Shown here piece after piece: positions 18,416 to 44,562 of a DNA stretch of 49,340 bases (the first letter of the stretch is position 1; each line of letters begins with the position of its first letter). The DNA is from Pseudomonas sp. GM78 (GTDB lineage: Bacteria; Pseudomonadota; Gammaproteobacteria; Pseudomonadales; Pseudomonadaceae): positions 1 to 49,340 of the forward strand of contig NZ_AKJF01000009.1 in NCBI RefSeq assembly GCF_000282475.1. The letters run 5' to 3'. The notes beneath the pieces were generated by a model. The model was not told the DNA's origin and did not search any database. It was given only the letters and a program-made list of their open reading frames with translations. Made by a program: the position numbers and the translations under genes.

Positions 18416-18434
18416 CCGGTCCGCCTCTTTCGCG

Positions 18435-26819: not shown

Positions 26820-27761
26820 ATGTCCCGTCGTCTTCCTCCTTTATATGCCCTGCGCGCATTCGAAGCGGCGGCGCGGTACACGTCGTTTACCCGGGCCGCG
26901 GAAGAACTGTCGATTACCCAAAGTGCAGTCAGTCGGCATATTCGTACCCTCGAAGAGCATTTTGCCTGCCGCCTGTTTCACCGCAGTGGTCGTAATCTGC
27001 AGCTGACCGAATCGGCGCGGTTGATCCTGCCGGGCATTCGTGACGGTTTCACCGCCCTGGAGCGCGCCTGCAATACCTTGCGCGCCGAAGACGACATCCT
27101 GCGCATGAAAGCCCCGTCGACCTTGACTATGCGCTGGTTGCTGGCGCGGCTCAGCCGTTTTCGGCACCTTCAACCGGGCAATGAAGTACAGCTGACCAGC
27201 GCCTGGATGGACATCGACTCGGTGGACTTCAACCAGGAACCGTTCGATTGCGCCGTGATCCTCAGCAACGGGCATTTCCCGCCGGACTGGGAGGCTACGT
27301 TGTTATTTCCAGAGGAACTGATTCCGGTGGGCGCGCCTAACCTTCTGAACGATCAGCCTTGGGACGTCGCCCGCCTGGCCAGCACCGAACTGCTCCACCC
27401 AACGCCTGACCGTCGCGACTGGCGCAGTTGGCTGGAGCGCATGGGCCTGACCGATCAAGTTTCACTCAAGGGCGGCCAGGTGTTCGACACGCTAGAGCTG
27501 GGGATGATCGCCGCCGCCCGAGGCTATGGGGTGTCCATGGGTGATTTGTTGATGGTGGCTGAGGACGTTGCGCAAGGGCGTCTGAGCTTGCCGTGGCCGA
27601 CGGCGGTCGCCAGCGGTGAGAATTATTACCTGGTCTGGCCCAAAACCCGCCCCGGAGGCGAGCGTTTGCGCCGCCTCAGCGTTTTCCTTCTGGGCGAGGT
27701 TCGGGCCATGGAGCTACCGGCGGTCGAGCACCTGGGTCACCTCAATTCAGCATCACGCTAA
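26820..27761 (+). CDS. LysR family transcriptional regulator
   Basis: 313 residues, close to GcvA/AmpR-type regulators: MSRRLPPLYALRAFEAAARY then the HTH segment SFTRAAEELSITQSAVSRHI. Effector domain from about residue 90. It is divergent from the MATE gene and the intergenic LTTR box fits autoregulation. Its stop overlaps that of the convergent vWA gene by 4 bases, marking the boundary of the Srf block. Confidence 0.9.
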   Translation: MSRRLPPLYALRAFEAAARYTSFTRAAEELSITQSAVSRHIRTLEEHFACRLFHRSGRNLQLTESARLILPGIRDGFTALERACNTLRAEDDILRMKAPSTLTMRWLLARLSRFRHLQPGNEVQLTSAWMDIDSVDFNQEPFDCAVILSNGHFPPDWEATLLFPEELIPVGAPNLLNDQPWDVARLASTELLHPTPDRRDWRSWLERMGLTDQVSLKGGQVFDTLELGMIAAARGYGVSMGDLLMVAEDVAQGRLSLPWPTAVASGENYYLVWPKTRPGGERLRRLSVFLLGEVRAMELPAVEHLGHLNSASR

Positions 27762-29269
27762 TTGCATTTGGCATTGCTGGAGACTTCCTTGCTCGCCTGT
27801 TTCAACAGGTTACCCAGCTCAGCCGCATTGGTGCTGTTGTAAATCCGACCTCCGGTGTTTTCCGCGATACAGCGTGACGGGCCGCCAGCACCGATTTTCA
27901 CCACGTTGACCCGAAGGCGCGGTTGTTCCCTGGCGATTCGACGGGAAACCGCGCAAACGTCCTGCCCGCAACCGTCTTCGCCGTCGACAAACATCACGAT
28001 GACCGCATCGTTATTGCGCCCGTCGACGGTACTCGCCGCATGGGCCAGGCTGTCGGCCAGCGGTGTGCCGTCGTCGGGCACCAGGCCTCGAATCCCGTTG
28101 ATCAGCCGCGGGCGGTCGCCGAACTTATATATACCCCGGTCGGGTGTTCTTTCGCAGCCGGCGAAGGTGATCAGGCGTGTGTCGATCTTCGGGTCCAGCC
28201 CGTTGATCATGCCGGCCAGCGATTCCTTGGCGACGTCCATGCGGCTGGGTCTGGCGGTGAGCCGCATGGTGCGGTTCGGGTCCAGGAGCTTGTTGAGGTC
28301 AGGACCGTAGAACCAGTCCTCGTCGGCTTTCACTGCCTTGATGTTCAAATCCATCGAGCCTGAAGTGTCGAGCACCACCACGAACTGCGGGACCTCTGAC
28401 TTCGGCGCCGTTTTGCGGCATGCGAAGTTGTCCAGCGTCGGGGCGGGTGGCGGGGCCGCCACTTCCGGTTTGGGTGGTGGAACCGGTTTGGGTGGCGGGG
28501 TCGGCTTGGGTTCCGGTGCAGGAGCGGGTGCCGGTTTGGGTGGCGGGACCGGCTTGGGTTCCGGTACCGGTACCGGTTCTGGCGTGGGTTCTGGTGGCGG
28601 AACAGGTTTCGGTTCCGGTTCCACGACTGGCGCGGGAACAGGCTCAACCGGCTTCTCAACGGGCTTCTCAACGGGCTTCTCAACCGGTTTCTCAGCTGGC
28701 GTAACCACCGGCGCTACAGGCGGAACCACGACAACCGGCTCACGGTGCAGGAACCACCAGAGCCACAGCGCCAGAAGCAGCAACAGCAGCGCGAGCAAGG
28801 CCGCCGCGAGCCACCAGCCACGCCGCGACGGTGGTACGACCGGTGCCACCGGAATCACCGGTGGCACGATCGGTTTGGGTGGACGCTGGTTCCAGCGCAC
28901 CACCAAAGGCTCACCGTTGAGGCTGTAGAGTTTGTCCAGCTCAGGCGTGCCGAGCAGGCTGCGCAGGTCCTCCGCTTCCGTCGCTTGACCGCGTTTTTGC
29001 AGTTCATCCGCCAGCTGTCCGAGGGACGTCTGACGCACCTCATAGGTTTGCAGCAAACGTCGTTGCGCGTCCTCGTTGAGATCGGCATAAGGCGTGGGTT
29101 GGCCGCCCAGTTCGGTCCACCATTCCAGAACGTCGCCACTGCCCATCCGCGGGATGGCAAACAGGCTGGCGACGGTCGGCGGAAAGTGTTTCTGGATGAG
29201 GGCGACTTTGGCTTGCAGTGCACTCATCCCCTCCGATGTGGCTTGCGCATCCCTGATGACCCGCTGCAT
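27758..29269 (-). CDS. Membrane-anchored proline-rich vWA protein
   Basis: 503 residues. An N-terminal cytoplasmic part (1-150) is followed by one membrane helix (152-174), a proline-rich linker (177-290) built of EKPV and PxP repeats, and a vWA domain (296-490) with a perfect MIDAS DTSGS at 302-306. Six or more cysteines lie in the vWA part, compatible with a periplasmic location. It is the last gene of the eleven-gene Srf block, set apart from the upstream gene by 57 bases containing a terminator-like hairpin. AGGA stands 10 bases before the ATG. Function unknown; metal-dependent ligand binding is expected from the MIDAS. Confidence 0.85.
   Translation of the reverse strand: MQRVIRDAQATSEGMSALQAKVALIQKHFPPTVASLFAIPRMGSGDVLEWWTELGGQPTPYADLNEDAQRRLLQTYEVRQTSLGQLADELQKRGQATEAEDLRSLLGTPELDKLYSLNGEPLVVRWNQRPPKPIVPPVIPVAPVVPPSRRGWWLAAALLALLLLLLALWLWWFLHREPVVVVPPVAPVVTPAEKPVEKPVEKPVEKPVEPVPAPVVEPEPKPVPPPEPTPEPVPVPEPKPVPPPKPAPAPAPEPKPTPPPKPVPPPKPEVAAPPPAPTLDNFACRKTAPKSEVPQFVVVLDTSGSMDLNIKAVKADEDWFYGPDLNKLLDPNRTMRLTARPSRMDVAKESLAGMINGLDPKIDTRLITFAGCERTPDRGIYKFGDRPRLINGIRGLVPDDGTPLADSLAHAASTVDGRNNDAVIVMFVDGEDGCGQDVCAVSRRIAREQPRLRVNVVKIGAGGPSRCIAENTGGRIYNSTNAAELGNLLKQASKEVSSNAKCN
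28650..28697. repeat. 12-base tandem repeat encoding EKPV units
   Basis: Four copies of GGCTTCTCAACG (last two diverged) inside the proline-rich linker gene segment. Unit length is a multiple of three, so gain or loss alters only linker length. Confidence 0.8.
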
Positions 29270-29283
29270 GACGACGATTCCTG

Positions 29284-29315
29284 AAAAAGTGCAGGCATCC
29301 GTCGGGATGCCCTGC
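29284..29315 (-). terminator. Intra-operon terminator-like hairpin before the last vWA gene
   Basis: Read on the minus strand: GCAGGGCATCC, loop CGAC, GGATGCCTGC, then ACTTTTTC. The stem has one bulged base and is followed by five T. It would lower expression of the last gene relative to the ten before it. Confidence 0.6.
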
Positions 29316-29326
29316 GGGGTGAAAAG

Positions 29327-29833: not shown

Positions 29834-29837
29834 GTGC

Positions 29838-30575
29838 TTAACCCAGGGTAATTGCGGAGCGTTGGCTGTACAGGGCGTCGACTTCCTTCTGCAGGCTGAC
29901 GACTTTCTGGTTCATTCTCTGAATGTTCATCTCCACTTGCCGGATCTCGGCGCTGGAGCCTTGTGAACGCTCGGCATCTGCCACCTTGCGGTACTCGGTG
30001 ACTTTGGTACGCATGTTGGCAAGGTCTTTGCGCAGGCGTGCGATGTCCGAATCGATCCCGGCGATTTGCGCCTGGGCCCTGTTCTTGTCGACTTTCTTGT
30101 TGGCGATGTCCTTTTTGATCTGGGCAATTTGCGCACGGTCATCATTGATCACTTGCTGAGCGGTCGCTGTCCGGGCGATCACGTTCTGCGTGTCTTGTTC
30201 GACGTCGCTGTTCATCTTCGCCAGGCGGGTGGTGGTGTCGGCGTATTGGGCGCGACGTTGATCCAGGTAATAGTTCGCGCCCATGGCCACGCCACACGCG
30301 GTAATACCGGCGGCGATGACGCACACGGTTTTGTTGTTGCTGTTGGACAGCGCGCAAGCAAGGATGCCGACACCAGCGCCGACGGCGCAGGCCTGGTATC
30401 CGGACTTGCTGAAGAACTCTGCGTCATTGCCCTGGGTCAGGCGCGGGTCGGGACCTTCACCTTCGCCATCGCCGAGCATGGAACTGCCAGTGTTGGCGCA
30501 ACCGGTCATTAGCAGGCTGCTGGCGACTACGAAAGCGATCTGTAGTTTGAAGCGAGTCCAAAGGCTGCGCGACAT
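29838..30575 (-). CDS. Coiled-coil lipoprotein in the TagQ position
   Basis: 245 residues. Lipobox SLLMTGC with Cys26, and Ala at +2, so probably outer membrane. Residues 62-106 are a glycine- and alanine-rich hydrophobic stretch (ACAVGAGVGILACALS, VIAAGITACGVAMGA) that may insert in a membrane; residues 110-235 form a coiled coil. In the T6SS threonine phosphorylation pathway the lipoprotein TagQ follows tagR and anchors TagR at the outer membrane. The position here is the same. Sequence kinship with TagQ I cannot confirm. Confidence 0.75.
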   Translation of the reverse strand: MSRSLWTRFKLQIAFVVASSLLMTGCANTGSSMLGDGEGEGPDPRLTQGNDAEFFSKSGYQACAVGAGVGILACALSNSNNKTVCVIAAGITACGVAMGANYYLDQRRAQYADTTTRLAKMNSDVEQDTQNVIARTATAQQVINDDRAQIAQIKKDIANKKVDKNRAQAQIAGIDSDIARLRKDLANMRTKVTEYRKVADAERSQGSSAEIRQVEMNIQRMNQKVVSLQKEVDALYSQRSAITLG

Positions 30576-30609
30576 GGTGAAACTCCTACGTAACGGTGTT
30601 GACGCGTTG

Positions 30610-32154
30610 TTATTGAGTGACGGTTTTGCAGCTGTTCAGCCAGGCTGCAGTGTCGATTTTTTGCTTTTGCAGGAACGCTTTCTGATTGGCCCAGTGCGTG
30701 CGCAAGTAAGGTTTCAGGTCTTGCAGCTGCTTGTTGCGGGTGATGATTTCTTCCATCACCGGGACTTGCGTTTCAAGCAGTGGCTGGCCGTACAAGGTAG
30801 CCGACTCCACCAGGCTGCTGGCGTAGTAACGGCTGAGTTTGTGCAGGCGGTCCTTTTGCTCCTCGAGCTTGCCTTTACGCATGTCGCAACTGGCGTCTTT
30901 GTCCGCACCTTCGCAATTGAGCTTGTAGTTCTTTTGCAGGAAGTCCACGTACTGGCCGTCGTCGAGCATCTTGGTGCACAGGAACGCACCCAGGTTGAGG
31001 CTGGCGCGGATCGCCTGGTCGCGGGTTTCTTCCTGCTGCTGGTTACTCGCGCGCAGCTGGTTCTCGAGGGCCTGGAGCTTTTCCTTGAGCGCTTTGTCTT
31101 CGACGCCCGAGGCGAGGCTGTTCAGCGATTGCACGGTGCCTTTGTCGGCGGATTCGGGTTCCTGGCTGCCGGTGCCGAGTTTCTTCCAGCTGCTCTCGAT
31201 GCTGGCGACTCGCTCGCGAGAGGTGAGGGTCGGGGAGACCAGTACCAGTCGCAGGCCGGTGGTCTTGTTTTTCACCTGGCCTTCGGCATTGTAATACGGT
31301 TCTTCCTTACGTAATGCAGTGTGCAGGTCGGCCTGCGCGGTCAGGTAGTTTCCGCCACGGACGACGTAGCCACCGGCCTGACCGTGCTGGCGGTCGAGTT
31401 TGTTCAGGCGAAACGGCTCGAACATCATTTCGTCGACGTTACCGAGCATGTCATGCAGGCCTAGCGGGTTGGGCTTTTGCAGGCCGGTCAATTGCACTTT
31501 GCCATTGGACGATTGCGCCCCGGCGAACCACTCGTAGGCGTTGATGCCTTCTGGCATCGGGTAGTGCGTGTCGCGGAATTCAGCAGCACCGACTTCCAGC
31601 CCGCCGCGCGCGGCGAACTCCCATTCGACCTCGGTCGGCAGGCGCAGGAAACCCAAGGCGCCGTCCTCCTTTGGCAGCTTGCCGGCGGCGTTTTTGCGCA
31701 GCCACAGGTTGTACTTGTCGGCGGCGTCGATGGCTTGCACCCAGCTCACCGCCGTTTGCGGCAAGCGCAGCTTGGTGGCGGCGGTGGGGCAGGTCGCTTC
31801 GGTCAGTGCGGCGTATTGCAACTGACTCATCTCGTACTTGGCCATCAGGTAGTAGCGGGACTTGTCGTTCTTGGCCCCGGTAAAACTGCCGGCGATAAAG
31901 GTCGGGCGGGTCTGCTCGACATAGCCGTATTCCGCGCCGTCCTGACCGATGTTGATCGGGTAGTCATCCAGGGGGCCTGCGACCGGAATGAACACCTTGC
32001 GAAACACCATCGAACCGTCGCAGGGCATCGGCAGCACGACATCGCCAGCCTCGGGCATTGGGTTGTAATACTTCTCTTCCCAGCCCGCCGCCGAGGCGTC
32101 GAGCAAGTAGCCGAGGCTCAGGGGCAACAGCAAGCCAAAACGTTTATAGCTCAC
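30610..32154 (-). CDS. TagR-like SUMF1/FGE-fold periplasmic protein without catalytic cysteines
   Basis: 514 residues. Signal peptide 1-23 (cleavage near ASA-AGW). Residues about 45-310 form a SUMF1/formylglycine-generating-enzyme domain: RYYLMAKYEMSQLQYAALTE, FLRLPTEVEWEFAARGG, NPLGLHDMLGNVDEMMFEP, YVVRGGNYLTAQADLH. Where true FGE has two cysteines after RGGS (about six residues apart), this protein has Thr and Leu, so it cannot be a formylglycine-generating enzyme of the known type. Residues 315-514 are a helical extension absent from simple SUMF proteins. It overlaps the permease gene by 11 bases. In T6SS, TagR binds the periplasmic part of the kinase PpkA. Confidence 0.83.
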   Translation of the reverse strand: MSYKRFGLLLPLSLGYLLDASAAGWEEKYYNPMPEAGDVVLPMPCDGSMVFRKVFIPVAGPLDDYPINIGQDGAEYGYVEQTRPTFIAGSFTGAKNDKSRYYLMAKYEMSQLQYAALTEATCPTAATKLRLPQTAVSWVQAIDAADKYNLWLRKNAAGKLPKEDGALGFLRLPTEVEWEFAARGGLEVGAAEFRDTHYPMPEGINAYEWFAGAQSSNGKVQLTGLQKPNPLGLHDMLGNVDEMMFEPFRLNKLDRQHGQAGGYVVRGGNYLTAQADLHTALRKEEPYYNAEGQVKNKTTGLRLVLVSPTLTSRERVASIESSWKKLGTGSQEPESADKGTVQSLNSLASGVEDKALKEKLQALENQLRASNQQQEETRDQAIRASLNLGAFLCTKMLDDGQYVDFLQKNYKLNCEGADKDASCDMRKGKLEEQKDRLHKLSRYYASSLVESATLYGQPLLETQVPVMEEIITRNKQLQDLKPYLRTHWANQKAFLQKQKIDTAAWLNSCKTVTQ

Positions 32155-33367
32155 GCAGACTCTCCGCAGGTTGGATGTTGATGGCTCGCAGGGCGCCGAT
32201 CATGGCCACCAATGCAGCGACCAGGAAGGTCAGGAGCAGGGCGGCGACGCCATGCCAGACGGTGATGTGGCAAACGAAGGTGCCGGTGGCCTGGCTGCCA
32301 CCGAGCAGGTAGTCGAACAAATGACTGCCCACGGCATAAGACCCCAGCCCGCCCACGTAGCCGGCCAGACTCAGCACCAGCGCCTGCAGGACCACGAAAC
32401 CGCCGACGGACCTGCGCTTGAAACCCAGCAGGCGCAGGACTGCCAGGCTTTTGCGTTTACGATCGATGTTGGCCAGGAACGCGCCAACCATGGACGCCAC
32501 GCAGCCGATCAGCGCCGCGATGGCGATCACACCGAAGATCAACCCCAGCACATGGTTGATGGCTTTGACGTTGTCGATGTCGGCCAGTTGGCTCGACGTT
32601 TCGATGTGTTGTTCGTTGAGCCAGTGTTCCAGCGGCGCGACTTGATCGATGTCACGCGCATACACTCGGGCGCGGGCATACAGCGGTTGCAGGTTATCCT
32701 GAGGCTTGCCGGTGGTAATGCCGAACTCACTGACCTGATAACCGTCGCGAAAGCGCTCCAGAGCCAGCAACAGCGGCGGGGCGACAAACCCGGCAGCGCG
32801 ACCGAAGCGGGCACCGTCGAGCACGGCCAGTACCGTCAGCGTCATTTCGCCACGTTCATTGACACCCTCCAGGCGGCGCAAGGCCCGCAGCTGCACGCTG
32901 TCACCGGCCTTGGCTTGCAGGCGCTGCGCTGCGCTGGCGCTGAGGATCACTTGATTGCCGACGGGGTTGAGTGACGCCAGGTTCAATTGTGGGTCGCCGG
33001 GCTCGGTGGCGATGATTTCCGCGCCTTCGACAAACCGTTGCATGCCGATCAGCAGGTCAGCCTGGGTATTGAGCGAGCGGGTCTGGCCGAGGGCAAAACC
33101 GGTCTCGGGGCGTTGGCGCAAACGCTCGATCCAGGCCGAGTCGTAGTTGCCGTTGCTGAGCATCTTCACTTCAAGGTTGCGCGGGTCGCGCAGCAGTTCG
33201 TCCTGCAGTTGGCTGACCACCCCATGCTTGAGCCCGAACAGCAACAACAACGGCGCGATGACCGCCACCAGGGAGGCGGCGATACACAGCGAGACCTTGC
33301 GGTCGTGCCACAGGTCTTGCAGTGCCAGTGAGCCCAGCAGGCACAAGCGATCAGTCCATCGGTTCAA
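32144..33367 (-). CDS. FtsX/MacB-type ABC permease (TagS-like)
   Basis: 407 residues with one membrane helix near 22-46, a large periplasmic domain (50-265) and three helices at about 272-298, 325-350 and 375-396, the FtsX/LolE topology. The C-terminal LRAINIQPAESLREL is typical of this permease group. It begins 17 bases inside the ATPase gene and its end overlaps the SUMF gene, so the three are translationally linked. It has no role in bulk transport that can be read from sequence; members often transmit ATP-driven conformational change through the membrane. Confidence 0.85.
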   Translation of the reverse strand: MNRWTDRLCLLGSLALQDLWHDRKVSLCIAASLVAVIAPLLLLFGLKHGVVSQLQDELLRDPRNLEVKMLSNGNYDSAWIERLRQRPETGFALGQTRSLNTQADLLIGMQRFVEGAEIIATEPGDPQLNLASLNPVGNQVILSASAAQRLQAKAGDSVQLRALRRLEGVNERGEMTLTVLAVLDGARFGRAAGFVAPPLLLALERFRDGYQVSEFGITTGKPQDNLQPLYARARVYARDIDQVAPLEHWLNEQHIETSSQLADIDNVKAINHVLGLIFGVIAIAALIGCVASMVGAFLANIDRKRKSLAVLRLLGFKRRSVGGFVVLQALVLSLAGYVGGLGSYAVGSHLFDYLLGGSQATGTFVCHITVWHGVAALLLTFLVAALVAMIGALRAINIQPAESLREL

Positions 33368-34052
33368 ACAGCGTCTCCCCTTGATGGCTGATAGCGCCGA
33401 GTCGCGGCAAGCCGAAATCCTTCAGCAAGGCCCAATCATGGGACACAACGAGCGCACTCAGGCCCATGCTCGACACCAGGCTCAGGAGCAACTCGAACAA
33501 ACGCCGTGCACCGTGAGGGTCGAGCGCGGCGGTTGGCTCGTCGGCCAACAGCAGCAGCGGTTCATGGGCAATTGCCCGAACGCAGGCAACGCGCTGGCGT
33601 TCGCCGATCGACAAGGCCTGAGGTTGTTTATCCAGCAACCCTTGCAGGCGCAACACGTCAACCGCGTGGTCGATGTGATCGCTCCTGGCCGGCATTCCGA
33701 GCAAACGGCGCGGCAGGCTGATGTTGTCGCGCACGCTCAGGAACGGCAGCAAGCCACCGCTCTGCAAAATGAATCCCAAGTGCCGTGAACGCACCGCTGC
33801 CAGAGCAGGCTGGTCGTCCGTGGCGAGCAGTTGGGCGATATCCTGGGCGTGCGTCGGGCCCAGCCGAAAGCGCTCGAGTTCCACCGGCGCGAGCAACAGG
33901 CCGATGGCTTCGAGCAACGTGCTTTTGCCGCTGCCGCTCTCACCGGTGATGGCGAGGATTTCCCCAGCGCCGACCTGCAACTGCGGCAGTCGCACATGAT
34001 GAGCCTGTGCGCCTTCACCACGGCGCACCAGCAGGTTCTTGATATCGAGCAT
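33351..34052 (-). CDS. LolD-like ABC transporter ATPase (TagT-like)
   Basis: 233 residues. Walker A GESGSGKST (37-45), Q-loop FILQSGG, signature LSIGERQRVA (LSxGE instead of LSGGQ), Walker B LLLLADEPTAALD, switch His in VVSHD. Cytoplasmic partner of the permease that overlaps its end. The order ATPase, permease, SUMF protein, lipoprotein is that of tagT-tagS-tagR-tagQ. Confidence 0.88.
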   Translation of the reverse strand: MLDIKNLLVRRGEGAQAHHVRLPQLQVGAGEILAITGESGSGKSTLLEAIGLLLAPVELERFRLGPTHAQDIAQLLATDDQPALAAVRSRHLGFILQSGGLLPFLSVRDNISLPRRLLGMPARSDHIDHAVDVLRLQGLLDKQPQALSIGERQRVACVRAIAHEPLLLLADEPTAALDPHGARRLFELLLSLVSSMGLSALVVSHDWALLKDFGLPRLGAISHQGETLFEPMD

Positions 34053-34062
34053 GGGCGTCTCG

Positions 34063-36054: not shown

Positions 36055-37091
36055 CACTTCTGCAACTCCTCGAAGCGCTGCTTGGCTTCGGCGTTGTTCG
36101 GGTCCTGGGTCAGGATGGTTTCGTACCAGTAGGCGGCGGTGGCGTTGTCCGCAGTCGGGAAGCACTCGCTGGCCTTGAGGTATTTAGGGTCGTATTCACG
36201 GGCATAGGCGTTGGCGATCAGCGCGTCACCGGCCTGGGCACGGTTGGCGTACAGGCGCTGGGCGACGCCGCAGTGCTTGCTGGCCTTGGCCTGGTTGATG
36301 ATCTCCAGCAATTTGGCACTGTCGGGCGCCGCCTTGATGCAGGTCTGGACGAAGGTCAGCTCGGGCAGGCTGTTCATGCTGTCGAGGGTGCAGGCTTGAG
36401 CGTCGGCGCCGGCAGGTGCGACGGGGGCGGTGGCAGTGGTGGCAACCGCAGGGGCCGGGGTGCGTTTGTAGAACCAGAATCCGGCGCCTGCCGCCAGCAG
36501 CAACACCACAATCAACAGACCGATCAGGCCTTTGTTGCTTTTTTTAACCGGTGCGGGAGGAGGCGAATAGGCAGGCTCGGTGTGCACCGACTCCAACTCC
36601 AGTTCTGGCTCGGCGGTGGACAGGGTCAGTTCAGGCAGGTCCGGGATCTCCGGGATCTCTGGTTCCGGTGCCGGTGCGCTCGGCGCCGTCAATTCGGCAC
36701 TGCCGTAAGTCGAACGTGTCTGGCCACCGGCCGTGGACGGCAGCAAACCAACGCCAGGGCGAACCACGCCTTTATCGGCATGACCGTGGCTCTGTTCGCG
36801 CAGTTCGATCTGGAATTGCGAGTTGGCGACGCCTTCCAGCAGCGGGTCGACCACGTCCGGACCGACCTGCGTCTCCAAAGCTTCGCCGTCGGCCGAGAGG
36901 TTGAAACGCGAGACCTTGAACCAGAATGGATTGTTGCTCCAGGCCTTTTGGTCCTGAAGGTAAAAACCGTCCTGGTTGCGCTGAATGGAAAACTCCAGCT
37001 GTTCCTCGCCACCCTGCCATTTCTTCACAGTGAGGCGGGCCTGGCCAGGCACATTGGGCTCTAACGCGAGCAGGTCGACACGAATTGGCAT
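36054..37091 (-). CDS. Single-pass membrane protein with FHA-like or beta N-terminus
   Basis: 345 residues. The N-terminal 100 residues look beta-rich (MPIRVDLLALEPNVPGQARL, DGFYLQDQKAWSNNPFWFKV); residues 135-182 are a Pro/Glu-rich linker; residues 188-208 form one membrane helix (GLIGLLIVVLLLAAGAGFWF); residues 225-345 are a periplasmic domain of helical repeats with paired cysteines, ending in a TPR-like unit (AAYWYETILTQDPNNAEAKQ). Not recognised as a named family. It lies 3 bases after srfC's stop and shares a TGATG with the vWA gene, so it very likely belongs to the complex. Confidence 0.75.
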   Translation of the reverse strand: MPIRVDLLALEPNVPGQARLTVKKWQGGEEQLEFSIQRNQDGFYLQDQKAWSNNPFWFKVSRFNLSADGEALETQVGPDVVDPLLEGVANSQFQIELREQSHGHADKGVVRPGVGLLPSTAGGQTRSTYGSAELTAPSAPAPEPEIPEIPDLPELTLSTAEPELELESVHTEPAYSPPPAPVKKSNKGLIGLLIVVLLLAAGAGFWFYKRTPAPAVATTATAPVAPAGADAQACTLDSMNSLPELTFVQTCIKAAPDSAKLLEIINQAKASKHCGVAQRLYANRAQAGDALIANAYAREYDPKYLKASECFPTADNATAAYWYETILTQDPNNAEAKQRFEELQK

Positions 37092-37094
37092 TGC

Positions 37095-39809
37095 TTATCT
37101 CGCTGCGAAGGCTGTGAGCACTTGGCCCAGCCGTTCGTTCTGTTCAGGGGTGATTTCACGTCCGGCACCATGGCCGGCATTGTCCTGGGTGATGTAGGCC
37201 AGGCCCGAGAGCCAGTCGCCCAGGTACCGTTGCGCCTGGTTCGACGGTTGCGCCGGCAGTTCGGGCACTTGTCCCGGGCTAATGTCGGTGTAGAACGAAA
37301 ACAAGGGCGCCTTGGCTCCGGTGCGGCTGTTCGGGCGCTCGTTCACCGGCTTCTGGAGGTAGCCGAACCAGGACACGAAATCGCGCAGCACACGTTGCAC
37401 TTCCAGTACCTGGCGCTCGACCAGTTGATCGCGCCGCGCGCCACTTTGTGCGCGCTTGAGGACGGCGCGGCTCAATTGCCCCGGCAGGTCCTGGCGATAG
37501 CCGGCGGTGATCAGTTCATCGACCACCGCTTCCAGCAAGGCCTTTTCCAGCCCCAGCAGGTTGAGCAGGCTTTGCCGGGTGGTCAGTTCCCGCAGGTGCG
37601 CGATCCAGGCCTTGAAGGCCGCTTTGGCAAAGCGATGCTCATTGCTTTGCAGCTCGGGCGCCGGGGTGCCGGTTTTGTTGCTCGCCGGCGTGCTGGTGGG
37701 GCTCAGGTCGTCACCGAAATCGAAGTCGAAACCGGCGTCGTTGCCGTACAGGCTCTGGCTCGGCGTCGGCGCGACCGGTTCGTCGGTCACGGCCGGCTCG
37801 TCATCGGTTTCGTACACGCCGCTGAGGTACAGGTCGCGCACCTCTTCGCTCGGCATGTCGAGTTGATCGATCAATTCGCCAAGTACGGCCGGGCGACGGC
37901 CCAGGCCCGTCAGAATCATTTGCGCCTTGGCTTTCTTGGCGGCTGCGGCGCTGTCGTCGTCAGCGTGGTACCAGCTGCTCAGGCCGTGAGTGGTCAGGCC
38001 TTCGAGGCATTCGCTCAATTGCTCGCGGATGCGCTGCAATTTGAATTCGATATTGGCCACGCCTTTGAAACTGCCGCTGAAGTGGCTGATGCCACCGTCA
38101 TCGTTGCGCAGCATTTCTGTCCAGGCGTTGGCCGGGCTCTTGATGTGTTTGCACACCAGAGCGTTGCTGGCGAAGCTGGTGCCCAGCGCGCTGACACGTT
38201 CCTGATAGAGGGCATTGAGGCCGGTTTCCGCACCGGTCGCGTCTTGCCCGATGAACGCCGCGTCCATACGCGGTTTGCGCACCAGGTAGGTGTTCTGGAA
38301 CGGTGTGCCGGCCCAGTCGTTCATCCAGCTCAGGCTGCCGAAACGCTCCAGCATGGTCAGCTTGATCATGCCGTTCCAGCTCTCGTCGTACTGATCAGGC
38401 GTCAGGCTCAGGGAGTTGGTGATGCGCAGGTCGAGCATGGTCAGCGCCCAGATCAGGCCGGTGTCGCGCTTGCTGCGGGCGGCCGAGTCGGCGCCCTGGG
38501 TTTTTTCGATCCAGCGGGTCAGTACCGGGCCCACGTCGTTGACGTCGCTCTGTTTGGTCGAGCCTGTGCACACCACCAGCGCGTTCATTTCCTGATTGTC
38601 GGTGTAGCGTTCGAACAGGTAGGCGACCTTGCCGCGCAGGATCAGCTGGGAAACGGAGTTGTCCTTGGCGGTAGACTCGGGGTCGCTGGAATCGGCGATC
38701 TCGTGCAGTTTCTGGCGCCCGCGATAACCGGGGAAGTCCAGCAGGTCGACCTGATTGACGATGTCATCTACTGGCGCTTCGATCAGGCGGAAGGTCATTT
38801 CGGCGGTCAGTGCCGCCAGTTGCGCGACCGCAATGGCCTGACTGTTTTGCAGGCGATCGCCAACCAGTGGTCGAACATCGATCGGCAAGTCCTGCGGGCT
38901 GCCGAAGCGTTCGAGGATGTCGACGTTCATGATGCTGTCGCGCTGGCTGTAGGTGTCGTTGTCGAAACTCACCAAGGCCTTCAGAGGTGCGAATACGGTC
39001 TCGGGCAGACCCAGCTTGTGCAGCGCACCGGCCAGTTGCTGGTACACGCGCGTCAACTCGCGTTGCTCACCCCAGAGAATCGAAAACAGCTCGGCCCTTT
39101 CCTGGAAATTCAGGCGTGGCGCCAGTTGCAACGCTTTGGGCCAGTACAGGTGCTCGAGCTTCTTCACCGAGTTGCGGAAGTTGTCGCGCAGGTAATCCCA
39201 CAGCGACACCAGATCGTCGGCGTTGACGCCCGTTTGCAGCGGCCCGGTTTCGCGGCCTTCGAACGGTTTGAGCACGCGTTGGATGCGCTCTTCATCGATC
39301 TCGTAGGAAATCCGTTCAAGGTCGAAATCCTTGAACCAGGCGTTGGCGAGAATCTTCGCCAGCTCGATTTCCTTGAACAGCGTGAGTTCTACAGGGAAGT
39401 CATTGTCCTGACTGACCGTCGCCCGACGGCTGAAACGCGTTACCAGGCCGGTGGCTTCCTTGCCACCACCCACCGGGTTGATGTGTTTGATGAAGTCCAG
39501 GCGCTGGTCGCCGAACTCGGTTTCCAGCTTGCCGTTCTGACCGGCGGCGAGGGCCGAAATCAGGTAGGACTTGCCGGCCTGGGACAAGCCGAAAAAGCCA
39601 ATGGTCATCGGCGTGCAGGCCACGCGACCGAGGCTTTGGGCCAGGTTGCGGGCGCGGTGCAGGCGGATGTTCAGGTTGTCGGCTTCGCTGTCCAGGCGCG
39701 GTGCATTGCCGCGTGTCTGGCCAATCCAGTCCAGCGCCTGACCGGCGCCTTCATAAACAGCGGCCCAACTGGCAGAGAGCTGAGTTTGATCAGGGGTCAG
39801 GTCGTTCAT
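37095..39809 (-). CDS. srfC: SrfC-like P-loop GTPase
   Basis: 904 residues. P-loop GLSQAGKS (74-81), G3-like motif LLDFPGYRG, and many leucine-rich helices after residue 500, a layout resembling dynamin-like or septin-like large GTPases. A family annotated as putative virulence factor SrfC. In Salmonella srfABC is controlled by SsrB, but its biochemical role is not established to my knowledge. It shares an ATGA with srfB (4-base overlap), so the two are coupled. GTP specificity and membrane activity are inference. Confidence 0.82.
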   Translation of the reverse strand: MNDLTPDQTQLSASWAAVYEGAGQALDWIGQTRGNAPRLDSEADNLNIRLHRARNLAQSLGRVACTPMTIGFFGLSQAGKSYLISALAAGQNGKLETEFGDQRLDFIKHINPVGGGKEATGLVTRFSRRATVSQDNDFPVELTLFKEIELAKILANAWFKDFDLERISYEIDEERIQRVLKPFEGRETGPLQTGVNADDLVSLWDYLRDNFRNSVKKLEHLYWPKALQLAPRLNFQERAELFSILWGEQRELTRVYQQLAGALHKLGLPETVFAPLKALVSFDNDTYSQRDSIMNVDILERFGSPQDLPIDVRPLVGDRLQNSQAIAVAQLAALTAEMTFRLIEAPVDDIVNQVDLLDFPGYRGRQKLHEIADSSDPESTAKDNSVSQLILRGKVAYLFERYTDNQEMNALVVCTGSTKQSDVNDVGPVLTRWIEKTQGADSAARSKRDTGLIWALTMLDLRITNSLSLTPDQYDESWNGMIKLTMLERFGSLSWMNDWAGTPFQNTYLVRKPRMDAAFIGQDATGAETGLNALYQERVSALGTSFASNALVCKHIKSPANAWTEMLRNDDGGISHFSGSFKGVANIEFKLQRIREQLSECLEGLTTHGLSSWYHADDDSAAAAKKAKAQMILTGLGRRPAVLGELIDQLDMPSEEVRDLYLSGVYETDDEPAVTDEPVAPTPSQSLYGNDAGFDFDFGDDLSPTSTPASNKTGTPAPELQSNEHRFAKAAFKAWIAHLRELTTRQSLLNLLGLEKALLEAVVDELITAGYRQDLPGQLSRAVLKRAQSGARRDQLVERQVLEVQRVLRDFVSWFGYLQKPVNERPNSRTGAKAPLFSFYTDISPGQVPELPAQPSNQAQRYLGDWLSGLAYITQDNAGHGAGREITPEQNERLGQVLTAFAAR

Positions 39810-42800
39810 TTGCGTTTCACACTTCCACTGTCGAGCCAGTACTTGGTCTCGCTCAGGCCGGCGTCGAGCATGGTGTTGAGTTCCAGCTCGAGGTCGCTGC
39901 GCGGGTTGAAGTTGACGTTGTTACTGTTGGATTCGATGTCGCGAACCGAGAGGCGGTCGCTGACCAGATCCTGCTTGCGGGTGTATTTGTCCGCCGGTTT
40001 GACCTCGAACCGTACCTTGAGCAGCGGCGCGCTGCCGTTTTCACCGATCGCGCGGGAGAACTTCTCCCGACCCGCCTTGGTGAACCGCAAGGTATACAAC
40101 GGCGAAGCGGCCCAGCGTTCAGCGGCCAACTGGCGGAAACCGAGGCGCAGATCGCCGCGCATTTCCAGCTGTGGCGTGTCGGCGGCGTCGCCATCGCCAA
40201 TTACCGGTAGCTTGATTTTGTAGTCTTCGGACTGGATATCGCGGTACAGCACGTCGGCGTCCTTGATCACGTTGTTCAGATCGATGACGCCGATGTTCTT
40301 GACCGTCGAATACGGCTTGAGCGCCGATGCCCGGAAGTAGAAGTTCGGCACGCTGTGGTTGGCGCACAACAGGCAGAGCATGGCACCGACCGAGGCGGTG
40401 CTTTTCGGGTCGTCGATCCGGCCGTTCTTGTGAAACGGATACCAGCCGCCGGTGCGGTAGTTTTGCAGCGCCAGAATGCGCCCCGGTGGCAGCGGCAGCA
40501 CCTTGCGAATGAACGCCTGGATGCCGGGCAGGCGCGAAGGGCGGCCTGTCAGCAGCAGGACATCACACGGGTAATGCGCGACCACTTCACACAGCGCCCC
40601 GAGGATCTTGGTGATGTTGATCTGGTCGTTGAGGAACGCGGCGTGGAGCTTTTGCAGGTCGAAGCTGATCGGCGCGGCATACAGGTCGAAACCGCTCTGG
40701 GCGCCGACATCGCGACGCACGGCGGCATTGACGTAGTCGAGCACGGTCTGGCTGATCGCGTTGTCACCGAGCAATTGGCGGTAGCTTTGCGGGATGACTT
40801 CTTGCGGGACCTGCGGATCGTAATGCTCGTACGCCTTGAGCAGCGCCAGGCCCAGCGGGGCGAACACCTGGAGGTTCAATTGCTGACGCAGGATCATGTC
40901 CTGGGCACTGACCGATTCATCGCCACACAGCCGCGACATCAGTGAGTTCGGGGCCTTCACGCCGGCGTTCTGCAAGGCTTTTTCGAAACTCGGCAGGATG
41001 AAGTCCTGAATCACGTCCAGCAGGATGTCGTCGCCGGCCACTTTGAAGCCATCGCGAAAACGCTGTTCGGGCACGATGTGCACGTTGCTGCCGCTGCCGG
41101 TATTGCCCGCGCGGTCGAGACGATAGTCGGTGATCACAAGGTCCGTGGTGCCACCGCCGATGTCGATGGTCGCGAGGGTGATGCGTTGGCGGTCGGCCTT
41201 GTCCGGTCGGGCGATGGTGTCAAAAAACTCTTCCGGGTGACCGGCGAAGTTCTCATTGACCTCGGTGTACAGGTAAACCAGCTGGCCGCAGGACGCTTCG
41301 TCCCATTCCACACGGATACTCGGGATCGGCGTGCGCGGGCTGACGGCCTGGTCCAGATGTGGATCTTCCTCACCGGCATGCCAGCCGAGGCTTTTCCACA
41401 CCAGGCCGATGGCCTGCAGCATGCGTTCGTTGAGGATGCTGCGCTCGGCCTGCGGCATGCCCGGCGGCACGGTCAGGGTAATACTGTTGAGCTGGCGCGG
41501 CACGCGGGTGTGACCCTGGCGCGAGCGCTGGGCCGGGCTGTTGATTTGCGACAGCGCCTGGGCCAGTACTTCGGCGAGCATGAAGGTCATCAGCGAGCTG
41601 CGTGAGTAACGCGGCATGAACACCGGCAGGCGATCGTCTTCTTCGAGGCTGTAAAGCGCCTCGCCGGTTTCGTTGATCAGGTGCGAGAACGGCGCGGCGG
41701 TGGCAAACGGTTCATTGTCGGTCTTGATGTACGAGCAGTTGAAGCGCCAGCCGTGGCCATAGGCGTTTTCGTCCCACAGATAGCGTTTCGGGCTGGACAG
41801 GCCAGTGGAGCCTTCGGTGCCGCGACGACGACTGGCCAGGCGACCGGCCTCATTGCCGACACGGGCAATCGTCGCCCATTGGAACGCATCGTGACGACCA
41901 CTCTTGACCGAACAGTGGTCCTTGCCGAAATACGCTTGGGCGAATTCCACGCGGCTTTCGAACGGCAGGTTGTAGGTGTGTTCGGGGGTGATCAGGTCGC
42001 GCAGTTCCAGCACGTAGTTCTGCTTCAGTCCGGAACCGGCCTGACCGTGGTTTTCGATCAGGATGCCGCAGGTGCGCGAGTTGCCGACGTCCAGCACCAG
42101 GTCCACCGGTATCGGTTTGACCAGGCCATTGCTGTCGTTGGCAACCACTTTCAGCTCGGGGATTTCAACTTTCGCCTGGACCTTCGACTGTTGGGCGGCT
42201 GACGGTTTGCTCAACAGGCTGAGCAAGTTGAGGTAGTGCGCCAGGTGGTGGTTGGCGCGGATATCGATGTCCAGCTCTGCGCGCGAACGGTGGGCATTGC
42301 CCTCATTGAACACTTCCAGCAACCACTCGTTGACCCACGGCTGCGCCAGAAACCAGCGGGTTTCGCTCGCTTTGGTCGCCAGTTTGAAAGACACGCCGGA
42401 GCTGATGTCTTCTTCGTTGGGCGCCAGATAGGCAGTGCCGTCACGCTTGGGCATCACACGGCTGTCGAACGCCATCGTCAGGCGGTGGGTGTTGCCGTCG
42501 ATGTCGGGAGTCTCCAGTTTCACCAAGCGCATGCGCGACCAGTTGCTCGGACCTTCGTCGAAGCGATGCGGCGGCATGAAGCGGAAAAACGGGATCGGCA
42601 GCCAGATACCGTCGAGCAAATCGAGGCTGCTTTTCATGTCGACGCTGAACGCAGGTTTGGCTTTTTCGACCTTTTCCGGTTCAGGTTCGTAGAAAAAGAA
42701 GTCTTTCTCTTCGTTGTACGCCAGGCGGCAGATCAGCCCACTGATCATCGGTGCGAACTCGCCCGCCGGTTCCTTGCGGGGATCCAGGCGCAGGGCGAAA

Positions 42801-42871
42801 TCCATGAACTGGATGCCGGTGTCGCTGACCAGCGTGACGGTGTCTTCGAATTGAGTGACTTCAGGCAACAT
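39806..42871 (-). CDS. srfB: SrfB-like actin/Hsp70-fold ATPase
   Basis: 1021 residues. Two nucleotide-binding motifs of the actin-Hsp70 superfamily are visible: LVLDVGNSRTCGIL (258-271, phosphate 1) and ATIDIGGGTTDLVITDY (567-583, phosphate 2), with a later adenosine-site segment LLTGRPSRLPGIQ. The first 250 residues and the tail after 850 are extra. Probably cytoplasmic. The pair SrfB/SrfC has two different NTPases made in a coupled way. Named from the srfABC operon of Salmonella, where no clear function has been shown. Confidence 0.84.
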   Translation of the reverse strand: MLPEVTQFEDTVTLVSDTGIQFMDFALRLDPRKEPAGEFAPMISGLICRLAYNEEKDFFFYEPEPEKVEKAKPAFSVDMKSSLDLLDGIWLPIPFFRFMPPHRFDEGPSNWSRMRLVKLETPDIDGNTHRLTMAFDSRVMPKRDGTAYLAPNEEDISSGVSFKLATKASETRWFLAQPWVNEWLLEVFNEGNAHRSRAELDIDIRANHHLAHYLNLLSLLSKPSAAQQSKVQAKVEIPELKVVANDSNGLVKPIPVDLVLDVGNSRTCGILIENHGQAGSGLKQNYVLELRDLITPEHTYNLPFESRVEFAQAYFGKDHCSVKSGRHDAFQWATIARVGNEAGRLASRRRGTEGSTGLSSPKRYLWDENAYGHGWRFNCSYIKTDNEPFATAAPFSHLINETGEALYSLEEDDRLPVFMPRYSRSSLMTFMLAEVLAQALSQINSPAQRSRQGHTRVPRQLNSITLTVPPGMPQAERSILNERMLQAIGLVWKSLGWHAGEEDPHLDQAVSPRTPIPSIRVEWDEASCGQLVYLYTEVNENFAGHPEEFFDTIARPDKADRQRITLATIDIGGGTTDLVITDYRLDRAGNTGSGSNVHIVPEQRFRDGFKVAGDDILLDVIQDFILPSFEKALQNAGVKAPNSLMSRLCGDESVSAQDMILRQQLNLQVFAPLGLALLKAYEHYDPQVPQEVIPQSYRQLLGDNAISQTVLDYVNAAVRRDVGAQSGFDLYAAPISFDLQKLHAAFLNDQINITKILGALCEVVAHYPCDVLLLTGRPSRLPGIQAFIRKVLPLPPGRILALQNYRTGGWYPFHKNGRIDDPKSTASVGAMLCLLCANHSVPNFYFRASALKPYSTVKNIGVIDLNNVIKDADVLYRDIQSEDYKIKLPVIGDGDAADTPQLEMRGDLRLGFRQLAAERWAASPLYTLRFTKAGREKFSRAIGENGSAPLLKVRFEVKPADKYTRKQDLVSDRLSVRDIESNSNNVNFNPRSDLELELNTMLDAGLSETKYWLDSGSVKRK

Positions 42872-42877
42872 GTCGGG

Positions 42878-44296
42878 TTATTCCGTTTTTTCGGCCACTT
42901 GCCGCATGGACATGGGGAATTGTTCTTTTCCGTAACCGCCGGTGCAGTCCGCGATCGTGGTCGCCCCTGGGCGGCAGTTGACCTTGGGCATCTCGTAAGT
43001 GCTGCCATCGGCGCAAACGGCCTGGCCCTGGCTGTCGATGGCCAGGCTGCCACCCTTCATAGTAGCGCTCACCGGCCCACTGCATTTCGATCCGTTGGCC
43101 TGGTGGACGGTGACTTGGCCCTTACCGTCCTTGAGCTGGTATTCCAGGCGCAGCGGTTTGCCGGTTCGGCTGTCCTGTATCCCGGCGCCTGCGCTGTACT
43201 GGCCATCGAGAAATTTGGCGGCACCGTCGGCGGCGTCTGGCGGGATGCTCAGGGGCGGGCCGGATTTTGCGGCGGCGGATTTTTCTGCTTCGGGCGATGT
43301 GACATCCGGCGGCGCGGTTTTGTTTTCGGGTGGCGCGGTCTTGTCTTCAGGTGACTCAGTTTTGTTTTCGGGTGGCGCAGTTTTGTTTTCAGCTGCGGGG
43401 TCTATGGCCGGGTCTTTGCTCAAGTCGGCGGGTGCCATGTCAGCCTCGTTACCCTCGACGGCCGGCGTTTCCACACCCTGCGTTCCGGTCACGGCGGTGC
43501 CGGTTCCAGTGGTTGAGCCTATAACGGTGCCTGTCACCGGGACGCCATTCAGCGTCGTGACATTGCCGGTCAGAGGCGGCTCTTCCAGTTGTTTTTCCAC
43601 CGGTACAACGCCCTTGGGCAGAAAATCTACCGCCACCAACGGGATCGGGACGCACCCTCGCAGGCCGAGCAACAGCCACAAAAGCAGCAGCAGGAGCGGC
43701 AGCAGCAACAGCCACCACCAACGACGCCACCACGGACGGGCAACCACCGGCACGACAGGCGCAACAACAGGCGCTTCGGCCACGGGTGGCAGCGTGAACG
43801 CGGGCGGGACCTGATAGAGGCAGTGCAGGGGATCGCTATTGCCAGTACCGGCATGCTCGAAACCCCAGAAGGTCAGCACCGGCTTGCCTTGCACCAGATA
43901 AACGAAGTTTTCGTCCGGGAAATGAATCACGCGCTTGAGTAGCTTGCCGAACACGGCTTTGTCGCCTTGCTGCTGTTCGGCGGAGTCAGTACCCAGGAAA
44001 CGCTGGCTCAATTCTTCGAGCGCGGTCTTCAGCGCTTCAAGCTGGCGGCGGGCAGGGGCGCGTTCTTCTTCGGTCGCGCTGCTCCACGGAATCACATCGC
44101 CGTCGAGGGCGCTGTACCAATCGATCTGGTTACCGAGCTCATCGCTTTGAGGGATGGCCAGATGATCTACCAAATCGGGATTCTTGCGGCGAATGGCTTC
44201 GCGCAATTGCAGGGCTGCCCGGTAGACCGGTTGACCTGTTTCGCCGAGGGCAGTGAATGACCCGCTCTTACCGCTGCGTAATAGTGCCCCGCGCAT
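42878..44296 (-). CDS. srfA: SrfA-like single-pass membrane protein
   Basis: 472 residues. N-terminal cytoplasmic part (1-188), one strong membrane helix with a Trp/Arg stop (RPWWRRWWWLLLLPLLLLLL, about 187-210), a repeat-rich linker (about 308-335, units of PPENKTA) and a C-terminal periplasmic part (about 350-472) with paired cysteines (SKCSGP, QAVCADGS, VNCRPG, ADCTGG). GGAG precedes the ATG. It is the first gene of the block; the name is by position and by resemblance to the SrfA family, with moderate certainty. Confidence 0.72.
   Translation of the reverse strand: MRGALLRSGKSGSFTALGETGQPVYRAALQLREAIRRKNPDLVDHLAIPQSDELGNQIDWYSALDGDVIPWSSATEEERAPARRQLEALKTALEELSQRFLGTDSAEQQQGDKAVFGKLLKRVIHFPDENFVYLVQGKPVLTFWGFEHAGTGNSDPLHCLYQVPPAFTLPPVAEAPVVAPVVPVVARPWWRRWWWLLLLPLLLLLLWLLLGLRGCVPIPLVAVDFLPKGVVPVEKQLEEPPLTGNVTTLNGVPVTGTVIGSTTGTGTAVTGTQGVETPAVEGNEADMAPADLSKDPAIDPAAENKTAPPENKTESPEDKTAPPENKTAPPDVTSPEAEKSAAAKSGPPLSIPPDAADGAAKFLDGQYSAGAGIQDSRTGKPLRLEYQLKDGKGQVTVHQANGSKCSGPVSATMKGGSLAIDSQGQAVCADGSTYEMPKVNCRPGATTIADCTGGYGKEQFPMSMRQVAEKTE
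43311..43394. repeat. 21-base tandem repeat encoding PENKTAP units
   Basis: Four copies of a 21-base unit, GGCGCGGTTTTGTTTTCGGG plus T and variants, inside srfA. Each encodes seven linker residues, so copy number changes keep the frame. Confidence 0.8.
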
Positions 44297-44407
44297 TCAA
44301 ACTCCATACGATCCGTTGCGCAAAAATGACAGACAAATGTGCCTGTACCTGCTCCTGCATTTGGCAAGTGACCATGATGCCATAATGGTGTCGCCGTCAA
44401 GCTGCAG

Positions 44408-44421
44408 GAGGTTTAAACCTC
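44408..44421. promoter_or_regulatory. Perfect 14-base palindrome upstream of srfA
   Basis: GAGGTTTAAACCTC lies 112 bases before the srfA start, next to a -35-like TTGACG on the minus strand (44395-44400). No good -10 was found 17 bases on. Operator role is inferred. Confidence 0.4.
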
Positions 44422-44503
44422 ATGAGACTAACGTAAGCGTGCGGAGGTTGCATAAGGTCAATATTAATTGGCTCTGGAAGGCTAGGGGGTGCACTTTTTA
44501 AGC

Positions 44504-44532: not shown

Positions 44533-44562
44533 AAATGCACAACTCCAAGAAAGGCTTTCCCC

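What the first reader, a model, noticed from the sequence alone, without database searches (positions are those of the whole stretch)
27758..44296. Eleven-gene Srf-Tag-vWA block: a candidate new envelope-to-cytoplasm signalling system
Seen: one strand, eleven genes, most gaps 10 bases or less or with overlap (ATGA, TGATG, 11- and 17-base overlaps). Parts: srfA (one membrane helix), srfB (actin/Hsp70-fold ATPase), srfC (P-loop GTPase), a second one-helix protein, a secreted vWA protein, an ABC ATPase and FtsX-type permease, a SUMF-like protein, two lipoproteins, and a membrane vWA protein. Known: srfABC is named from a Salmonella SsrB-controlled operon of unclear function. Inference: the block spans both membranes and has two NTPases inside, sensors and vWA adhesive domains outside, so it could turn envelope contact or damage into an NTP-driven cytoplasmic act.
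Basis: partly seen in the sequence, partly recalled or inferred. Interest (0 to 1): 0.92.

Follow-up and report, generated by a model that had tools for sequence, protein, structure and literature searches.

The report
Envelope-damage sensor wired to dynamin-Hsp70 pair
Eleven linked bacterial genes join a known outer-membrane damage sensor, stripped of its usual protein kinase, to two large motor-like enzymes that resemble a membrane-shaping dynamin and an Hsp70 chaperone, which suggests a machine that answers a torn cell envelope.

Summary
The eleven genes are real and keep one order in the window and all 15 other genus genomes found with SrfB. The second half of the block is not a new sensor. 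Gene 5 is the periplasmic half of the type VI secretion kinase PpkA (38.5-39.9% identity over ~640 aa, kinase missing). It is followed by TagT-TagS-TagR-TagQ in T6SS order. In P. aeruginosa that set reports outer-membrane damage (PMC11881912, passages). Predicted structures give SrfB an Hsp70-type fold and SrfC a bacterial-dynamin fold. SrfA and the last gene share a cytosolic domain. Six of 23 cassette-bearing genomes show no T6SS sheath gene, and no genus genome of 149 has both this block and PpkA. The neighbourhood itself was printed in 2013 (PMC3608642). In the phylum sample 13 of 21 SrfB genomes lack the cassette; 12 of them are one reduced branch. Best reading: envelope damage drives an Hsp70-like/dynamin-like pair that reshapes or seals the inner membrane. 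Sensor origin and folds are supported; the output is inferred.

The parts
42878..44296 (-). srfA, 472 aa: cytosolic N-domain, one membrane helix (~191-226), periplasmic C-part with cysteines
   Evidence: NF040486 437 bits; hydropathy; N-domain homologous to gene 11 N-part
39806..42871 (-). srfB, 1021 aa: Hsp70-type ATPase (nucleotide-binding domain ~254-838, beta-rich C-part) with a 250-aa N-extension
37095..39809 (-). srfC, 904 aa: bacterial dynamin-like GTPase
36054..37091 (-). gene 4, 345 aa: N-domain (cytosolic by inference), one membrane helix (184-210), Sel1/TPR-like tail; core partner of srfC
   Evidence: follows srfC in 90 of 107 loci; hydropathy; Sel1 in homologue L070; TPR/Sel1 PDB matches
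34063..36054 (-). gene 5, 663 aa secreted vWA protein = periplasmic half of PpkA without kinase
   Evidence: 38.5-39.9% identity over ~640 aa to the C-half of 12 PpkA-type proteins; D244/T246/S248/D359 invariant in A1; no kinase
33351..34052 (-). tagT-like ABC ATPase, 233 aa
   Evidence: PF00005 80 bits; its profile finds TagT in 8 of 8 T6SS loci at 225-231 bits
32144..33367 (-). tagS-like FtsX permease, 407 aa
   Evidence: PF02687 47.6 bits; 321-340 bits to T6SS TagS
30610..32154 (-). tagR-like SUMF/FGE-fold periplasmic protein, 514 aa; no Cys in the stretch after the RGG/KGG motif in any of 11 homologues, read by eye (that FGE keeps its catalytic Cys there is recall)
   Evidence: PF03781 106.7 bits; 268-299 bits to T6SS TagR; alignment A2
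29838..30575 (-). tagQ-like lipoprotein (lpA), 245 aa
   Evidence: NF041250 TagQ E 8.4e-6, below cut-off; profile finds TagQ after TagR in 8 of 8 T6SS loci, 46-58 bits
29327..29833 (-). second lipoprotein (lpB), 168 aa, coiled coil
   Evidence: conserved in position; not seen in the 8 T6SS loci by profile
29293..29312 (-). terminator- or attenuator-like hairpin between lpB and gene 11
   Evidence: stem in 16 of 16 genus loci, -12.8 to -23.5 kcal/mol
27758..29269 (-). gene 11, 503 aa: cytosolic SrfA-type N-domain, one membrane helix (149-177), proline-rich stem, periplasmic vWA domain
   Evidence: VWA_2 33.9 bits; N-domain homologous to SrfA: hhalign 97.5%, E 5.1e-12
44297..44494 (-). upstream region of srfA with a shared TTGAC element (possible -35)
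   Evidence: TTGAC within 140 bases of the picked start in 16 of 17 loci (alignment); the consensus scanner found no promoter above its threshold in 27700-44600

Best explanation
The block is an envelope-damage response system with a borrowed sensor and an unusual output. Sensor: the lipoprotein TagQ-like lpA, the periplasmic TagR-like protein, the TagT/TagS-like ABC unit and the secreted vWA protein g5 (PpkA periplasmic half) form the module that in P. aeruginosa reports outer-membrane damage. Transmission: because g5 has no kinase or membrane anchor, the signal must cross through the single-pass proteins made with it: gene 4 (next to srfC in 90 of 95 loci outside the short forms), SrfA and gene 11. 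The last two show the same cytosolic domain inside and different parts outside. Output: these recruit or release SrfB, an Hsp70-type ATPase, and SrfC, a dynamin-like GTPase, at the damaged spot. SrfC assembles on the inner membrane and tethers, reshapes or seals it, and SrfB drives its assembly or disassembly cycle much as Hsp70 proteins strip coats. Shown here: gene set, order, sensor homology, loss of the kinase, presence without a T6SS sheath gene, folds by prediction, shared adaptor domain. Inferred: the damage signal in this setting, topology, the path through gene 4/SrfA/gene 11, any contact of SrfB with SrfC, and membrane repair as the result.
For: g5 is co-linear with the PpkA C-half, and the cassette order g5-TagT-TagS-TagR-TagQ equals the T6SS order in 8 of 8 fetched T6SS loci. 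TagQRST-PpkA reports outer-membrane damage (PMC11881912 passages). No kinase match among 7,078 ORFs of 118 sequences; the positive control, 8 T6SS loci, gave 8 of 8 but shares proteins with the profile. Long SrfC keeps P-loop and DFPG in 22 of 22 TagS-bearing loci of the SrfB-selected set, while the 12 short forms keep the P-loop consensus in 4 and DxPG in 3: GTP site and sensor decay together, though in one branch. SrfB keeps its phosphate motif in both forms. Folds. g4 follows srfC in 90 of 107 loci. SrfA/gene 11 N-domain. Precedent: B. subtilis DynA supports membrane integrity (PMC8844932 abstract), and a dynamin-like partner of BDLP1 carries a DnaJ-like domain (PMC6104087 passage), which links dynamins to Hsp70.
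Confidence: 0.5

Rival explanations
1. A defence or sacrifice module: the same sensor and enzymes detect phage or contact attack and either slow lysis or kill the cell by breaking the inner membrane.
For: Patchy (16 of 149), inserted at a site that is empty in G021; a dynamin-like protein delays lysis by phage in B. subtilis (PMC8844932 abstract); no genus genome of 149 has both this block and PpkA.
Against: No PADLOC match that looks specific; no mobile or other defence genes noticed at the junctions, though none were searched for; strict order and wide spread suggest upkeep of the envelope.
Confidence: 0.2
2. A surface-behaviour system: envelope or surface contact is sensed to adjust swarming or motility.
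For: Salmonella srfC mutants, and srfB or whole-operon mutants in earlier work it cites, swarm poorly, and the operon is under FlhDC (PMC4219756 passage).
Against: By recall the Salmonella operon is the short form without the cassette; no sigma-28 box was seen upstream of srfA by eye, which was not scanned for.
Confidence: 0.1
3. SrfABC is a secreted toxin or effector and the Tag genes control its release, as suggested for Xenorhabdus and for host-associated Deltaproteobacteria.
For: Cytotoxicity of SrfABC from X. stockiae (PMC6950479 passages); PMC3608642 suggested that PpkA could trigger SrfC export.
Against: SrfB and SrfC resemble cytosolic NTPases; SrfA is membrane-anchored by hydropathy; the PpkA-like protein has no kinase; 6 of 23 cassette-bearing genomes show no T6SS sheath gene; relatives occur in genera that I recall as free-living, such as Reyranella and Elioraea.
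Confidence: 0.06
4. The block is a regulator of the host's own T6SS.
For: Its sensor cassette is homologous to the T6SS regulator; the own genome has a T6SS sheath gene on contig C78.
Against: No kinase; no tag or ppkA homologue found on the 21.5 kb contig C78; 6 of 23 cassette-bearing genomes show no VipB match.
Confidence: 0.05

Closest known systems
TagQRST-PpkA threonine-phosphorylation pathway of H1-T6SS (P. aeruginosa)
   Same: PpkA periplasmic half, TagT, TagS, TagR, TagQ, same order
   Different: no kinase domain, an added second lipoprotein and SrfABC-g4-g11; separate branch of the cassette tree
srfABC operon (named from Salmonella)
   Same: SrfA, SrfB, SrfC in the same order
   Different: the 12 short forms lack g4 and the cassette and have a shorter SrfC, with decayed GTP motifs in most
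srfABC-tagQRST-'ppkA' neighbourhood of host-associated Deltaproteobacteria (PMC3608642, 2013)
   Same: the same neighbourhood
   Different: that paper reads ppkA as a kinase; no kinase was found in the Srf loci read here, Desulfovibrionaceae included. No fold, and no mechanism beyond possible SrfC export, in the passages seen
Bacterial dynamin-like proteins (BDLP, SynDLP, Cj-DLP1/2, LeoA, IniA, DynA)
   Same: predicted fold and G1/G3/G4-type motifs
   Different: its neighbours are an Hsp70-type ATPase and a trans-envelope sensor; no hydrophobic paddle found by hydropathy
Hsp70/DnaK
   Same: nucleotide-binding domain, and loosely the beta-domain, in the model
   Different: 250-aa N-extension, no long helical lid in the model's C-part, no sequence-level match

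Membership tests
TagQRST-PpkA (TPP) pathway | TagT-TagS-TagR-TagQ directly after a PpkA-type periplasmic vWA domain | tested here: met
TagQRST-PpkA (TPP) pathway | Ser/Thr kinase domain of PpkA | tested here: not met
   kinase profile: 0 of 7,078 ORFs in 118 sequences; 8 of 8 T6SS loci as control
TagQRST-PpkA (TPP) pathway | a T6SS in the same genome | tested here: not met
   no VipB match in 6 of 23 cassette-bearing genomes, some of them drafts; present in 17
TagQRST-PpkA (TPP) pathway | response to outer-membrane damage | not testable with these tools
   known for the T6SS version (PMC11881912 passages)
srfABC | SrfA, SrfB and SrfC families in order | tested here: met
   NF040486, PF07520, PF10139 above cut-off
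Bacterial dynamin-like proteins | dynamin-type G domain and helical stalk | tested here: met
Bacterial dynamin-like proteins | GTP hydrolysis and membrane binding | not testable with these tools
   no hydrophobic paddle seen
Hsp70 | Hsp70-type nucleotide-binding domain | tested here: met
Hsp70 | substrate-binding domain | tested here: inconclusive
   some alignments run to model residue ~1000 with about 451-466 residues but rmsd ~7
Hsp70 | sequence match to the HSP70 family | tested here: not met
   only SrfB in the Pfam scan at E 0.1
Known anti-phage systems | match to PADLOC system proteins | tested here: not met
   10 of 11 proteins scanned (lpB not): generic ABC-ATPase matches of tagT (mad3 86 bits), coiled-coil matches of lpA, and PD-T4-6 at 15.4 bits over the proline-rich stem of gene 11

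The most novel reading that the evidence does not exclude
SrfB and SrfC are a dedicated Hsp70-dynamin machine of bacteria: a chaperone-type ATPase that assembles or strips a membrane-remodelling dynamin coat at sites of envelope damage, with exchangeable sensors plugged in (TagQRST plus kinase-less PpkA here; a dCache/PAS/GGDEF/EAL protein in Competibacteraceae). The low-confidence linker of SrfC (669-719) holds a short acidic-aromatic motif in many homologues that could be the Hsp70-like docking site. This would be a bacterial parallel to Hsc70-driven coat removal and an envelope repair pathway distinct from Psp and Cpx.
Probability: 0.3. Interest if true: 0.92.

Novelty: new variant of a known kind. 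Interest (0 to 1): 0.73.

Why it matters
srfABC has long been called a virulence factor, and later a toxin, without a mechanism. If its enzymes are an Hsp70-type and a dynamin-type motor and its old partner is the outer-membrane damage sensor of T6SS, then the operon has a testable job and a known stimulus. It would also show that the 'tit-for-tat' sensor is a portable module that can drive something other than counter-attack.

Tried and rejected
Adhesive role for the vWA proteins: rejected for g5 by full-length homology to PpkA. Recent transplant of the Pseudomonas T6SS cassette: the 8 T6SS cassettes are one side of a branch, apart from the Pseudomonas Srf cassettes (quick unrooted tree; only genus T6SS sampled), so the split looks old. 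Gene 4 as a relic of the PpkA middle part: its profile matches PpkA only over the membrane/proline stretch, so it was not counted. PDB sequence searches: none for SrfB or g5; a guanylate-binding protein at E 1.5 for SrfC. Single-sequence BLASTP of SrfA against gene 11 found nothing; only profiles show the shared domain. In 2 of 14 PpkA loci (L095, L097) my longest-ORF pick was another frame; identities are for the other 12, and the kinase profile was built from 12 ORFs. In one search eight hairpins were not folded because of a script flaw; one search repeats it for the 16 genus loci. The PpkA/Srf exclusivity (0 of 149, 5.3 expected, p 0.0011) takes no account of kinship, and at most 8 candidates per genome were scored (3). 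The 90-row tree carried long-branch warnings; one search was run for that reason. Literature: (srfC and dynamin) gave 4 papers, unrelated by title; (2 of 5 terms, 15 of 3,930 listed) was too broad to settle SrfB and Hsp70.
Full report
What is there. The block holds eleven minus-strand genes between a LysR gene (26820-27761) and a DUF4432 gene (44563-45774). Junctions are tight except tagR-lpA (34) and lpB-g11 (57), the latter with a terminator-like hairpin whose stem folds in 16 of 16 genus loci, followed by four or more T in 13. In genome G021 the flanking LysR and DUF4432 genes lie next to each other, with 85.4% and 89.9% DNA identity to the two sides of the window and about 74 bases that do not align (L225). 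Of the 30 DUF4432 loci read, L225 alone showed this; five, the window's own among them, had srfA next door, and the other 24 showed neither srfA nor this LysR gene within 1.5 kb. G+C of the block is 0.613; left flank 0.609, right flank 0.569.

Conservation. SrfB occurs in 16 of 149 genus genomes and in 22 of 398 phylum genomes, 21 above cut-off. I fetched 35 loci besides the window and mapped genes by iterated profiles. All 16 genus loci have the eleven genes in one order (in L047 gene 11 is cut by the contig end; L052 and L053 have a second gene-11-type copy), as do L062, L057 and L067: 19 of 36. L071-L073 (SrfB of L073 is identical to that of Commensalibacter melissae) have srfB-srfC-g4-g5-tagTSR, with lpA and lpB in two of three and no SrfA match. 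Twelve loci of one family code (f14) have srfABC without g4 or cassette; five of them show an ABC ATPase elsewhere that hits the tagT profile, without a TagS. L069 is cut, but its genome carries the cassette on another contig (L209). L070 has two srfA-type genes, srfB, srfC and g4 only. So in the phylum sample 8 of 21 SrfB genomes have the cassette and 13 do not.

Named relatives. One scan with a SrfC alignment gave 80 named loci, the best of 568: Acetobacteraceae and relatives, Desulfovibrionaceae including Bilophila, Reyranella, Competibacteraceae, and one MAG labelled Anaerolineae among others. Of 52 with at least 8 kb after srfC, 35 have TagT and TagS there. Gene 4 follows srfC in 90 of 107 loci; 12 of the 17 exceptions are the short forms. 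In Competibacteraceae locus L159 a dCache-PAS-GGDEF-EAL protein lies between srfB and srfC, and L152 has a protein of like size and start there; L145 has a DUF3592 protein instead. L152 has an NMT1-type binding protein after gene 4. So SrfB-SrfC-gene 4 looks like the core, with varying inputs.

The sensor cassette. A profile of g5 finds two kinds of protein in the genus: 16 Srf-type and 49 longer ones, mostly about 1,000-1,300 aa of open frame, whose last ~620 residues match nearly all of g5 (in G051 and G080 the match is in two pieces). A kinase profile built from 12 of them finds the kinase in 8 of 8 fetched loci, where they are followed by TagT, TagS, TagR and TagQ; by eye the upstream neighbours in L107 look like T6SS genes. 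They are PpkA by domain layout and order; for the other loci of the 49 the kinase was not checked, and the name is recalled from the literature. Window g5 is 38.5-39.9% identical to 12 of them over ~640 residues. In the Srf loci no kinase is found: 0 of 7,078 ORFs in 118 sequences. No genus genome has both kinds (0 of 149; 5.3 expected, not corrected for kinship). In the phylum sample 15 of 398 genomes match at E 1e-20: 8 Srf-type, all with SrfB, 6 PpkA-type, and G162, whose cassette has neither kinase nor SrfB. Six of 23 cassette-bearing genomes show no VipB match, so the system seems not bound to a T6SS; 17 do have one.

Trees. On g5+TagT+TagS+TagR (43 rows) the eight T6SS rows form one side of a branch (100*), and the Pseudomonas Srf rows group with Srf rows of other families (quick, unrooted). 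On SrfB (90 rows) the 12 short forms are one side of a branch next to L067, a full-length locus of the same family code (with long-branch warnings). A careful 22-row tree with 7 of the 12 short forms, rooted on five alpha- and delta-type rows, agrees (short forms 100/100, with L067 100/100; one clade of cassette-bearing gamma rows p-AU 0.029). The simplest reading is that this branch lost the cassette and gene 4. That it is enterobacterial, and that Salmonella's own operon is of this short kind, is recall and inference, not tested.

Adaptors. The SrfA N-domain profile finds 19 of 21 gene-11 N-parts (E 1.1e-11 to 2.6e-6) and none of 420 shuffled copies or 106 gene-4 N-parts; profile-profile probability is 97.5%. 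So SrfA and gene 11 present the same cytosolic domain with different outer parts. Gene 4 has its own N-domain and a Sel1/TPR-like tail. Membrane helices are by hydropathy and sidedness by inference.

What is known. PMC3608642 (passages) reported srfABC with tagQ/R/S/T, ppkA, ligA and a Hap-like gene in host-associated Deltaproteobacteria and noted that only one of them has T6SS machinery; it read ppkA as a kinase that might trigger SrfC export. PMC6950479 (passages) calls X. stockiae SrfABC a cytotoxin and notes T6SS-control genes nearby. PMC4219756 (passages) gives a swarming defect for Salmonella srfC. PMC6657622 (passages) shows that TagQ, TagR and PpkA are needed for contact-induced T6SS assembly, and PMC11881912 (passages) that the TagQRST-PpkA pathway carries the outer-membrane damage signal in P. 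aeruginosa. PMC8844932 (abstract and outline) and PMC6104087 (passages) cover bacterial dynamins in membrane integrity and tethering, and the DnaJ-like domain of one partner. In the listings, several of them cut short, I saw no paper that assigns these folds to SrfB or SrfC or joins them to this sensor as a mechanism; most subscription papers, and preprints of bioRxiv, are not in the library.

Verdict. The new content is the kinase-less PpkA, the presence without a T6SS sheath gene, the Hsp70-like/dynamin-like assignment, the shared adaptor domain, the joint decay of sensor and GTP site in the short form, and a concrete testable model.

Noticed in passing
window 29327-29269; L039-L053: A hairpin lies between lpB and gene 11 in 16 of 16 genus loci, with four or more T after it in 13; it may set the dose of gene 11.
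   Followed up: partly
window 44297-44494; L039-L053, L062: Upstream of srfA a TTGAC element is shared (16 of 17 loci), and a small inverted repeat is seen near it by eye in several loci: a possible operator.
   Followed up: partly
L208 (G162), 10520-19684: A g5-TagT-TagS-TagR-TagQ-lpB cassette with neither kinase nor SrfB/SrfC, followed by an S41 peptidase: a possible third output for the same sensor.
   Followed up: partly
L145, L152, L159 (Competibacteraceae and Contendobacter): srfB and srfC are separated by other genes: in L159 a dCache-PAS-GGDEF-EAL protein, in L152 one of like size, in L145 a DUF3592 protein; an NMT1_3 binding protein follows gene 4 in L152. Another input to SrfBC.
   Followed up: partly
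genus sample: Srf-type and PpkA-type cassettes never share a genome in 149; possible cross-talk avoidance.
   Followed up: partly
SrfC residues 669-719 (window 37095-39809): A low-confidence linker holds a short acidic-aromatic motif (such as DLFGD or DVFGD) in many homologues; D[ILMVF][FL] in 13 of 15 rows of A3 and 28 of 51 of A7, not in the window's own copy, which reads FDFGDD.
   Followed up: partly
L067, 14609-16516: SrfA with the N-domain twice in one frame.
   Followed up: no
G000 C78: The own genome's single VipB match lies on a 21.5 kb contig on which no tag or ppkA homologue was found.
   Followed up: partly
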